Shown here: positions 6,038 through 10,068 of the stretch, in pieces | Numbering within the stretch: the stretch's first letter is position 1 | Layout: each line of letters starts with the position of its first letter | Source of the DNA: Neoscytalidium dimidiatum | Taxonomy: Eukaryota > Ascomycota > Dothideomycetes > Botryosphaeriales > Botryosphaeriaceae | NCBI GenBank assembly: GCA_037367355.1 | Contig: CM074705.1 | Coordinates: 744,001 to 808,000 of the forward strand | DNA: 64,000 nucleotides | Reading direction: 5' to 3' | Program-made: the position numbers and the translations under genes | The notes under the pieces: model-generated | Seen by the model: the letters and a program-made list of their open reading frames with translations, nothing else | What the model was told of the DNA's origin: nothing | Database searches by the model: none

Positions 6038-8587
6038 ATGGCTTGCAAGCATGTCGACGCTGCGGGTAAGCTTCCCGATCTGCCCTACGAATATGGAACT
6101 GACCGTAGGCAAGAGCTGCGCGCTCCGGCCCCCAGCCAGTCCGTTTATCGCGAGGACTGCACCCAGTGCTTCGATTCCATTGTAAGCTTCCCGAACGCCA
6201 CCACAAGTCCCGCACGAGCTCCACGCTGACTCTGTTGTCCTAGGACGACCCTGCCGGCCTCGATGTCTGCCTTTACTGCTTCAACGGCGGCTGTACTGGG
6301 GAACGCAACCATTCGCGCCTCCACTACCAGTCCCGCAAACACCCTCTCGTGCTCAACATCCGCCGCACCCGCAAGAAGGTCAAAAGGGATGAGCCACCTC
6401 AAAAGATGACCAAACTTGCCATCGCTGCCGAGACTGAGGAAGACCGCTACGATACAACGACCCAGGTTAAGTGCTTCGAGTGTGGCGTGGATAATGTCGA
6501 TAAGACCAGTGGAAAGCTGCCAAATGTTGTGGATGCTGTGTTGAAAGCAAACACATTTGCTCGCCAGGAGGAGGTTAAGGCGTGGGAGCAGGAGATGATT
6601 CCTTGCGAGCACACGCTGTGTCTCGAGCAGGAGCCTGCCAAGAAGATCGAGTCGCAGGACTTGGGCCACTGCTCCATGTGCGATCTCAAGGAAAACCTCT
6701 GGTTGTGCCTGACCTGCGGAAACTTGGGCTGTGGTCGTGCCCAGTATGGAGGTGTTGGGGGAAATTCGCACGGTTTAGCGCACACGGACGCCACTGGTCA
6801 TCCCGTGGCGGTCAAGCTTGGTTCTCTTACTGCCGACGGCACCGCGGACATTTATTGCTATGCTTGCAATGAGGAAAGAGTTGATCCTGAGCTTCCAGCC
6901 CATCTGGCGCACTGGGGAATAAACATTGCAGACCGACAGAAGACGGAGAAGAGTTTGACGGAGATGCAAATTGAGCAAAACTTGCGATGGGAGTTTTCCA
7001 TGACCACCGAAGACGGCAAGGAGTTGAAGCCCATATTTGGTCCCGGCTTTACTGGGCTGAAGAATCTCGGAAATAGCTGCTATCTTGCCAGTGTTTTGCA
7101 AGCGCTCTTTTCCATGCCCGAATTTAAGGAACGCTACTATCACCCCAAAGACACGCCACCGGCGGCGGATGACCCCGCTCAGGACTTGGAGACACAACTT
7201 CGCAAAATTGCCGACGGTCTACTCTCCGGTCGCTACTCCAAACCAGACAGCGATGTAATTGCATCAGAAGAGACTCCTGAAGTTCCCCATCAGAAAGGCC
7301 TCGCTCCTGCGATGCTTAAGCATCTTATCGGGAGAGGTCATGCTGAATTCTCTACAATGAGGCAGCAAGACTCCTTCGAACTCCTTCTCCACCTTCTCAA
7401 GTTGATAACCCGCACCTCTCACCCTGCACCTCTCAAGGACCCTGTCGACGCTTTCCGATTCGTCATGGAGCAAAGACTACAGTGCTTGAACTGCAAGAAG
7501 GTGCGCTATAGGACTGACGAGATGGAGAACATCTCCATCCCTGTCCCTATAAGGAGGATTCCCAAGGATGTGAATATGGAGGTTACGGATTCCAAGGGAA
7601 AGGATGTCGAGAAAGAAGAATTTGAGCCAGTGACACTTAAGGAGTGTCTTGACATCTTCACCGCCTCCGAAGTTGTCGAACTCACATGCGCTTCGTGCGG
7701 TAGCAAAGATGGATTCACGAAGCAGAGTTTGTTCAAGACCTTCCCCGCAGTCCTTGCTGTCAACGCGCGCCGCTTCGAACTTGTCAACTGGGTCCCAACA
7801 AAACTTGACGTGCCTGTCGTCGTTGGAGATGAGGCAATTGCCTTTGATGCTTACAAATCTCATGGTCTTCAGGAAGGCGAAGAGCTCCTGCCGGAAGATG
7901 CGGACACTGCTACATCGAACAAATTCGTCCCCAACGAGGCGGCTCTGGGCATGCTCGAGGCTATGGGCTTCCCTCGAGTCCGCTGTGAGAAGGCACTTCA
8001 CGCAACGGGCAATGCGGATCCTGAGGCTGCCTCTAACTGGCTCTTCGCCCACATGGACGATCCAGATATCGATACCCCGGTGGACCTGAGTGGAGGAGGC
8101 AGTGGTGGATCCGGAGCAGGAGCGATCGACCCGGAGAAGATAGAGTCATTGGGCGCCATGGGGTTCGCGGCCCCACAGGCACGCCAAGCACTCAAGGAGA
8201 CGGGCGGCGACATGGAGCGTGCAGTTGACTGGTTGTTCAACCACCCCGAAGCAACTGGTGACTTCGGAGAGGAGGACGATGCGGCTGCCTCGGCACCGAC
8301 GGAGAGGGCGGAGCCTGGTTCGGGCGAGCTGCCTGCTAACTTTCAGCTGCAGTCGATTGTCTGCCACAAGGGCAGCTCCATTCATGCAGGGTATGTGCTC
8401 AGTTACTGCTGTAGGCAGACGATCAAGGCTGACGTATTGCAGGCATTACGTTGCATTCATTCGCAAGCAGATTCCGAACGAGGACGCGGCGTCCTGGGTG
8501 CTTTTCAACGACGAGAAGGTCGCTAAGGCGGCAGACATCGACGAGATGAAAAAGTTTGCTTACATCTACTTTTTCAGGCGCGTGTGA
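6038..8587 (+). CDS. UBP14: Ubiquitin C-terminal hydrolase, UBP14/USP5 type
   Basis: A cysteine deubiquitinase that disassembles free unanchored ubiquitin chains and so recycles ubiquitin and supports proteasome function. Exons: 6038-6065, 6114-6181, 6244-8390, 8443-8587, giving 795 residues. Order of domains: a variant zinc finger near the N-terminus (CTQCFDSI...CLYCFNGGC), the canonical ZnF-UBP at about 175-250 (CSMCDLKENLWLCLTCG...GNSHGLAH), the USP core starting GNSCYLASVLQ with catalytic Cys311, two UBA domains inserted in the core at about 595-640 and 661-702 separated by a Gly/Ser linker, and the His box GHYVAFIR with His749. This is the complete USP5 architecture at usual length. Intron 1 (6066-6113, 48 nt) is a multiple of three without a stop, so its splicing is the least certain boundary; removing it gives the shorter N-terminus MACKHVDAAELRAP. 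Confidence 0.93.
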
Positions 8588-9181: not shown

Positions 9182-10068
9182 ATGTTCAGAAGAGCCGTTG
9201 CCACTGCGCCGGCCCAGGCCAGCAAGCTCCTCACCTCCGCCGCCAGACCCCAGATCGCATCGCCTCTCCGGACAGCAGCAGCTCCCGCGGTCGCCGTCAA
9301 CAGCAGGCGGAGCTACCACGAAAAAGATAAGTGCCTCCAATCGCACTGCCTCTCCTGCGCTGCCTCGATGCGTCGGTGATAAGCAGCAGTCACTGCGCTC
9401 AAGTCGCCGTCGCTTCTCCCGCGCAGGCACCCTGCACCATTCCCCACCATCCGCTGGCCCCCTCTTTTCCGGCACCCATCCATACCAGCCAAGCACGCCT
9501 CCCAAGCTAACATCCGCAGCACTGCTCGACCACTATAACCGCCCTCGCAATGTCGGATCGATGAGCAAGAACGACACGGACGTGGGTACGGGGCTGGTCG
9601 GCGCGCCGGCGTGCGGCGACGTGATGAAGCTGCAAATCCGCGTTGACCCGAACAGCAACACCATCAGCGACGTCAAGTTCAAGACGTTCGGCTGCGGCTC
9701 GGCCATCGCGAGCTCGAGCTATCTCACCGAGCTGGTGCGCGGCATGACGCTCGAGCAGGCCGCCCGCATCAAGAACACCGAAATCGCCAAGGAGCTGTGC
9801 TTGCCACCTGTCAAGCGTGAGTCCATCCCCTCCATGCCCTTTTTGGCCGGAACCCGATCGTAGAGTTTTGTGTGTGTCGCTGACGGCTGTTTGCTTGATG
9901 ATAGTCCACTGCTCCATGCTCGCTGAAGATGCCATCAAGTCCGCCATCTCCAACTACTACACCAAGAACCCCAAGGCACGGCAAACGGATCTCGGCGGCA
10001 CTGGTGCGCCGCTCCCCAAGGTGGAGGTCGAGACCATCACCGAGACGCCAAACACTGCCACTGCGTAA
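9182..10068 (+). CDS. ISU1: Mitochondrial iron-sulfur cluster scaffold (IscU)
   Basis: The scaffold on which the mitochondrial Nfs1-Isd11 desulfurase complex, with frataxin, builds [2Fe-2S] clusters, which Hsp70/Hsp40 chaperones then hand on. Exons: 9182-9326, 9523-9816, 9905-10068, giving 200 residues. Residues 1-44 are an Arg/Ser/Ala-rich targeting presequence. The core has the three cluster-ligating cysteines, Cys79 (GAPACGD), Cys106 (FGCGSA) and Cys149 (HCSM), plus Asp81, and the chaperone-binding LPPVK motif at 142-146. About 30 poorly conserved residues extend beyond the core at the C-terminus. The first intron is unusual: it runs from ATAAGT to CAC. Joined at those borders it gives YHEK-VLDHYNRPRN, exactly the conserved family sequence; the only GT in range (9331) gives no such product. 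Intron 2 (9817-9904) is canonical and splits the Leu codon before HCSM. Confidence 0.9.
9327..9522 (+). other. AT-AC intron of ISU1
   Basis: A 196-nt intron beginning ATAAGTGC and ending GCAGCAC. The donor matches the major-spliceosome consensus except for A in place of G at +1; it does not match the minor-spliceosome ATATCC donor. A CTAAC branch site with its A at 9510 sits 12 nt before the AC end. Use of the CAG three bases earlier (9519) would also be in frame but would replace Val by Ala-Leu. U2-type AT-AC introns are an established rare class; that this is one is inferred from the protein junction. Confidence 0.75.

What the first reader, a model, noticed from the sequence alone, without database searches (positions are those of the whole stretch)
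9327..9522. AT-AC intron in the ISU1 gene
The first intron starts ATAAGT and ends CAC. Joining its borders turns ...TYR-HIS-GLU-LYS plus G|TG into YHEK-VLDHYNRPRN, the conserved IscU sequence, with no gap or extra residue. The only nearby GT donor (9331) is out of phase with the good CAG acceptor, and its in-phase partner adds residues absent from the family. The donor fits the major spliceosome apart from +1A, so this would be a U2-type AT-AC intron, rare in any eukaryote and little described in filamentous ascomycetes. A CAG three bases upstream of the AC makes a natural competition between AT-AG and AT-AC.
Basis: partly seen in the sequence, partly recalled or inferred. Interest (0 to 1): 0.78.

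Follow-up and report, generated by a model that had tools for sequence, protein, structure and literature searches.

The report
Conserved AT-AC intron in fungal ISU1
A fungal gene for the protein on which iron-sulfur clusters are built contains an intron with the unusual ends AT and AC instead of GT and AG; related fungi appear to share these odd ends, and many public gene predictions get the protein wrong because of it.

Summary
Confirmed and extended. In the window, ISU1 exon 1 ends at 9326 and exon 2 starts at 9523; the intron reads G|ATAAGT...CTAAC...CAGCAC|TG. Of 4,936 in-frame, stop-free removals tested, one alone restores YHEKVLDHYNRPRN, and it is AT-AC. The A is very unlikely to be a sequencing error: among 270 homologues examined, 52 of 52 with an insertion at this junction continue YHEK-D (G|AY), none YHEK-G (G|GT), and 71 of 73 readable intron 3' ends exclude a terminal G. 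The insertions come from 36 named taxa in three classes. Four such models match an insertion-free protein exactly elsewhere; Botryosphaeria dothidea's partner comes from short contigs that look like cDNA. No protein of 270 shows the AT-AG product. The canonical second intron, read the same way, gives C or R, as a GT donor predicts, in 44 of 44. Donor and branch point are of the major-spliceosome (U2) type. So this is a new, apparently old member of a known rare kind, the U2-type AT-AC intron, widely mis-annotated. No RNA reads and no relatives' DNA could be examined; spliceosome type, origin and persistence are inferred.

The parts
9182..9326 (+). ISU1 exon 1, mitochondrial presequence up to YHEK plus the first base of the V codon
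   Evidence: matches the start of family proteins
9327..9522 (+). intron 1, 196 bases, AT-AC, phase 1
   Evidence: the only removal of 4,936 that gives YHEKVLDHYNRPRN
9327..9332 (+). donor ATAAGT (U2-like apart from +1A)
9507..9511 (+). branch-point motif CTAAC, presumed branch A 9510, 12 nt before the intron end
   Evidence: the same spacing is implied in 36 of 73 homologous intron ends; the branch A itself is inferred
9517..9519 (+). CAG, the competing AG end three bases upstream; no product of its use seen
   Evidence: 0 of 270 proteins with its product
9521..9522 (+). terminal AC of intron 1
9331..9332 (+). GT at +5 of the donor, the site that GT-AG gene models could use
   Evidence: in-frame partners 9403, 9493, 9565
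9523..9816 (+). ISU1 exon 2
9817..9904 (+). intron 2, canonical GTGAGT...TAG, internal control
   Evidence: 44 of 44 read-throughs in homologues give C or R
9905..10068 (+). ISU1 exon 3 and stop

Best explanation
ISU1 intron 1 (9327-9522) is a U2-type AT-AC intron, removed by the ordinary major spliceosome: U1 and U6 recognise ATAAGT mainly through positions +2 to +6, U2 pairs with CTAAC, and the second step joins at the AC, with the first A and the last C replacing the usual G and G as the pair of ends that must fit each other. The same kind of end pair is shared by Dothideomycetes, Eurotiomycetes and Lecanoromycetes, so it is probably inherited. Changing AT-AC to GT-AG needs two changes through a poorly spliced intermediate, so the intron is trapped: it stays or is deleted. 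Shown: the bases, the unique junction, D in 52 of 52 insertions, a non-G last base in 71 of 73 intron ends, and insertion-free proteins with exactly V. Inferred: the spliceosome, the step-two fit, common descent and the trapping.
For: Unique junction. 50 of 50 insertions found by a pattern that did not ask for D, plus two more read by eye, begin with D; 20 of 20 in the two searches whose query had no insertion. 71 of 73 intron ends read L, so last base C or T. 0 of 52 allow the U12 donor ATATCC; 43 of 52 allow G|ATRNGT, against 48 of 400 random residue pairs. Branch motif at matching distance in 36 of 73. Control intron 2: 44 of 44 C or R. Exact partners without insertion, four pairs. Minor spliceosomal RNAs not found and none reported for Ascomycota (PMC10639083, PMC2846911, passages).
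Against: No RNA read of this fungus was seen, and no relative's DNA. D could be GAC as well as GAT (52 of 52 allow both) and L could be TTR as well as CTN, so in relatives the proteins exclude GT and AG but do not prove AT and AC. Two of 73 ends do not read L (P0120 and P0164, the latter a beetle record). Nine of 52 do not allow ATRNGT directly. U1 duplex energy does not favour the AT site (-4.2 kcal/mol, against -5.4 for GT 9376 and -4.7 for GT 9372). The third search used a query with an insertion and so favoured such proteins. The absence of minor snRNAs has no positive control.
Confidence: 0.92

Rival explanations
1. Canonical GT-AG splicing with extra residues (for example GT 9331 to AG 9493), as many public gene models assume.
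For: Such models exist in 36 named taxa; GT 9376 pairs better with U1 than the AT site.
Against: The inserts differ in length and sequence between species (4 to 46 residues), while 195 of 270 proteins have exactly V at this place (193 by pattern plus P0067 and P0148); four pairs are identical apart from the insert.
Confidence: 0.03
2. AT-AG: the intron ends at the CAG (9519) and the protein has one more residue, YHEK-A-L-LDHY.
For: CAG lies 9 nt after the presumed branch A and AG is the usual end; the frame is kept.
Against: 0 of 270 proteins show such a product. Some relatives have no room for an AG at this place, e.g. LTSPPL in P0228 and LTSNLL in P0258 (inference from codons).
Confidence: 0.04
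3. Sequencing or assembly error: the true base at 9327 is G.
For: Only one genome could be read as DNA here.
Against: 52 of 52 homologous models or ORFs with an insertion carry D, not G; an error at +1 would also leave the terminal C unexplained.
Confidence: 0.01
4. A U12-type AT-AC intron removed by a minor spliceosome still present.
For: AT-AC ends are typical of U12 introns.
Against: Donor ATAAGT is not ATATCC, and 0 of 52 homologues allow ATATCC; CTAAC is not followed by the U12 pattern CCTTAAC; U11, U12, U4atac and U6atac not found (no positive control).
Confidence: 0.01

Closest known systems
U2-type AT-AC introns of animal voltage-gated sodium channel genes (SCN4A intron 21 and relatives)
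   Same: AT-AC ends with a donor otherwise of U2 type, G at +5, and persistence explained by a trap between the two ends (PMC2831892, section 16; SCN4A passage).
   Different: Different gene and kingdom; here in fungi for which surveys report no minor spliceosome (PMC10639083, PMC2846911, passages).
AT-AC junctions counted in fungal genomes
   Same: Rare AT-AC introns in filamentous ascomycetes: 69 of 14,305 junctions in Trichoderma longibrachiatum (PMC4324775, passage), 0.03% of SnowyOwl introns (PMC4084796, passage), 0.019% of annotated fungal introns (PMC7072748, passage).
   Different: Those are bulk counts; the passages that I saw name no ISU1 intron and no conservation across classes.
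U12-type AT-AC introns
   Same: Terminal AT and AC.
   Different: Donor ATATCC and branch CCTTAAC are missing; consensus as quoted in PMC3033335 (passage).

Membership tests
U2-type AT-AC intron | intron begins with AT | tested here: met
   window base 9327-9328 and unique junction; relatives D in 52 of 52, which allows GAT or GAC
U2-type AT-AC intron | intron ends with AC | tested here: met
   window 9521-9522; in relatives only C or T shown, 71 of 73
U2-type AT-AC intron | donor of U2 type with G at +5 | tested here: met
   ATAAGT; 43 of 52 homologues allow ATRNGT
U2-type AT-AC intron | branch site of U2 type near the 3' end | tested here: met
   CTAAC 9507-9511, A 9510 to end 12 nt; by motif only
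U2-type AT-AC intron | splicing at these ends seen in RNA | tested here: inconclusive
   no reads of this fungus; insertion-free proteins on short contigs of relatives, e.g. P0001
U2-type AT-AC intron | removal needs the major and not the minor spliceosome | not testable with these tools
   needs splicing in extract or snRNA mutants
U12-type intron | donor ATATCC or GTATCC | tested here: not met
   ATAAGT; 0 of 52 homologues allow ATATCC
U12-type intron | branch site CCTTAAC | tested here: not met
   AAGCTAAC
U12-type intron | U11, U12, U4atac and U6atac in the genome | tested here: inconclusive
   0 matches each, no control genome rang; U6 and U2 found over the cut-off, U1-like below it
canonical GT-AG intron | a GT-AG pair giving the family protein | tested here: not met
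   none among the in-frame removals

The most novel reading that the evidence does not exclude
This intron is a fossil of the lost minor spliceosome: an ancestral U12-type AT-AC intron in ISU1 that gained a U2-type donor and branch site before or while the ascomycete lineage lost U12 splicing, and has been trapped with AT-AC ends ever since. It would be a fungal parallel to the animal sodium-channel case and would show how one gene survived that loss.
Probability: 0.25. Interest if true: 0.78.

Novelty: new member of a known kind. Interest (0 to 1): 0.6.

Why it matters
It gives a natural and apparently old test case for how the major spliceosome handles A and C at the intron ends, in organisms where genetics is easy. 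If the distribution holds in DNA, it would show that such introns persist or are deleted rather than revert, which makes the trap idea testable. It also shows a systematic error: public ISU1 gene models of 36 named taxa carry false insertions in a strongly conserved protein (essential in yeast, from recall), because gene finders force GT-AG.

Tried and rejected
Fungal DNA was sought with a degenerate 3'-junction pattern in viral contigs (19 hits) and genome contigs (2 hits); by their translation all 21 are bacterial-type IscU frames without intron. A U1 with the change that would pair with +1A was sought among the six U1-like loci of the genome and none was seen. Folding the intron gave a weak signal (z -1.67, 14 of 200 shuffles as good). 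A branch-to-CAC pattern that I spaced one base too short found one match elsewhere, below chance expectation of interest, and not this intron; it says nothing. U1 duplex energies do not favour the AT site. Human ISCU may have an intron at the same place: I recall this from its two N-terminal isoforms; one search (listing only) was not followed up.

Papers: searches that joined AT-AC or AU-AC with fungi, ISU1, ISCU, iron-sulfur cluster assembly, Aspergillus, ascomycete, filamentous fungi, Pezizomycotina or fungal returned 10, 0, 34 (20 listed), 0, 0, 27 (20 listed), 24 (15 listed), 1 and 4 papers. By title and start of abstract none is about this intron. I saw passages of nine papers (PMC7072748, PMC10639083, PMC3033335, PMC4084796, PMC4324775, PMC3577648, PMC6176087, PMC2831892, PMC2846911) and one section of PMC2831892; supplements could not be read, and the library lacks most subscription journals, so prior mention cannot be excluded.

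Full report
What is there. The window lies in a genome of 43.76 Mb in 40 contigs. ISU1 has exons 9182-9326, 9523-9816 and 9905-10068, and the genome has one NifU_N match. Intron 2 (9817-9904) is ordinary, GTGAGT...TAG. Intron 1 (9327-9522) starts ATAAGT and ends CAGCAC, with CTAAC at 9507-9511, 12 nt from the presumed branch A to the intron end.

Is the junction forced? A script tried all removals of at least 41 bases with first base 9290-9429 and last base 9400-9569. 4,936 keep the frame without a stop; one gives YHEKVLDHYNRPRN, and it is AT-AC. No GT-AG or GC-AG pair keeps YHEKVLDHY; AT-AG at the CAG adds one residue. The joined protein aligns without a gap over the junction to the solved Isu1 chain 5t0v (that this chain is from yeast is recalled).

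Is it real beyond this assembly? Relatives' DNA could not be read, but protein records reveal it. Three protein searches matched 7,996, 7,995 and 786 proteins, of which the best 120 each were listed; together 270 distinct ones. A pattern count gave 193 with YHE[K/R]-V-[L/I/V]DHY, 50 with an insertion after YHEK, 23 with another N-terminal part before LDHY, and 4 outside the patterns; of these four, two (P0067, P0148) have V and an altered PRN motif and two (P0114, P0117) have insertions. All 52 insertions begin with D, that is GAY: one exon base plus AT or AC. A GT donor would give G. In the first two searches, whose queries had no insertion, it is 20 of 20 among 180 proteins; the third query carried an insertion and favours such proteins. 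The inserts differ in length and sequence, as expected if each gene finder improvised an intron inside the real one. 43 of 52 allow G|ATRNGT directly, against 48 of 400 random residue pairs. Eight of the other nine begin DN or DD, which would fit a model spliced from the GT at +5 of ATAAGT or ATGAGT (my reading, not a test); the ninth begins DKA. None of the 52 allows the U12 donor ATATCC.

The 3' end. In 71 of 73 insertions or intron-starting frames the codon over the intron end reads L, so the last intron base is C or T and not G. The exceptions are P0120 and P0164, a beetle record. In 36 of 73 the residues LT (CTNACN) sit where a CTAAC branch site 12 nt from the end would put them, as in the window; 30 of 73 show no LT in the last 14 residues. 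The product of AT-AG splicing appears in 0 of 270.

Controls. Read in the same way, the canonical second intron gives C (23) or R (21) after LPPVK, as a GT donor predicts, in 44 of 44 read-throughs; 224 proteins are spliced there, one ends there and one lacks the motif. With the insertion set aside, four models equal an insertion-free protein exactly: P0004/P0001 200 of 200, P0020/P0010 205 of 205, P0044/P0005 205 of 205, P0101/P0026 196 of 196. P0004 is a Botryosphaeria dothidea gene model; P0001 comes from six contigs of at most 1,173 bases and has neither intron, as cDNA would; P0026 is on one contig of 1,295 bases. P0010 and P0005 are gene models on long contigs, so they show that another annotation chose V, not that RNA did. 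That the short contigs are cDNA is inferred.

Breadth. The 52 insertions include 36 named taxa (my count). Coccidioides immitis belongs to Eurotiomycetes, Xylographa carneopallida to Lecanoromycetes, Botryosphaeria dothidea to Dothideomycetes; the other 33 I place in Dothideomycetes from recall. In contrast, 14 proteins read through intron 2 yet have V at junction 1, which suggests DNA without intron 1. One is a Monilinia fructicola gene model (Leotiomycetes); five others (P0229, P0262, P0263, P0266, P0269) have contigs of over 6,000 bases and resemble Leotiomycete sequences. A transcript that kept intron 2, or a GT-AG intron 1 in the gene model, could mimic this in single cases. So the intron is probably ancestral to leotiomyceta and lost in at least some Leotiomycetes. 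That no lineage has gone back to GT-AG is not shown: V models could hide one.

Machinery. The genome has six U1-like loci, all below the family's cut-off, two with the canonical 5' end ATACTTACCT (L004, L005), one U6 with ACAGAGA and 25 U2-like matches. U11, U12, U4atac and U6atac gave no match, but no control genome rang, so absence is not proved here; published surveys report none in Ascomycota (PMC10639083, PMC2846911, passages). No U1 copy seen has the change that would pair with +1A. U1 pairing energy alone would not choose this donor: -4.2 kcal/mol, against -5.4 for GT 9376, -4.7 for GT 9372, -3.5 for GT 9331 and -5.8 for intron 2. The protein junction, conservation, branch site and AC end carry the argument.

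Known or new. U2-type AT-AC introns are a known rare kind. The animal sodium-channel cases have G at +5 and are thought to be converted U12 introns, trapped because both ends would have to change together (PMC2831892, section 16). In fungi AT-AC is 0.019% of annotated introns (PMC7072748, passage), and bulk counts exist for Trichoderma, Fusarium and others (passages). My searches, listed under Tried and rejected, showed nothing on an ISU1 intron or a class-spanning fungal case. I file it as a new member of a known kind; the fossil-of-U12 reading is open and testable.

Noticed in passing
own genome G000; loci L030-L037: 25 U2-like snRNA matches, 24 over the family's cut-off, scattered and of very unequal score. 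Of the 8 that I read, two (L033, L037) have GAAGTGAC where the others have GTAGTAAC or GTAGTATC, the branch-binding stretch. Variant U2 genes or pseudogenes; not tested.
   Followed up: partly
own genome G000; loci L002, L003, L006, L007: U1-like copies with altered 5' ends: L007 ATACTCACCT, L006 ATACCTACCT, L002 and L003 without the canonical 5' end; L004 and L005 are canonical.
   Followed up: partly
public ISU1 records, e.g. P0004, P0020, P0056, P0094, P0181, P0206: Gene models of 36 named taxa carry a false insertion or shortened exon at this junction.
   Followed up: yes
window 6244-8526 (+): Long open frame upstream of ISU1 that looks like a ubiquitin-specific protease of the Ubp14/USP5 kind (name from recall, not searched).
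   Followed up: no
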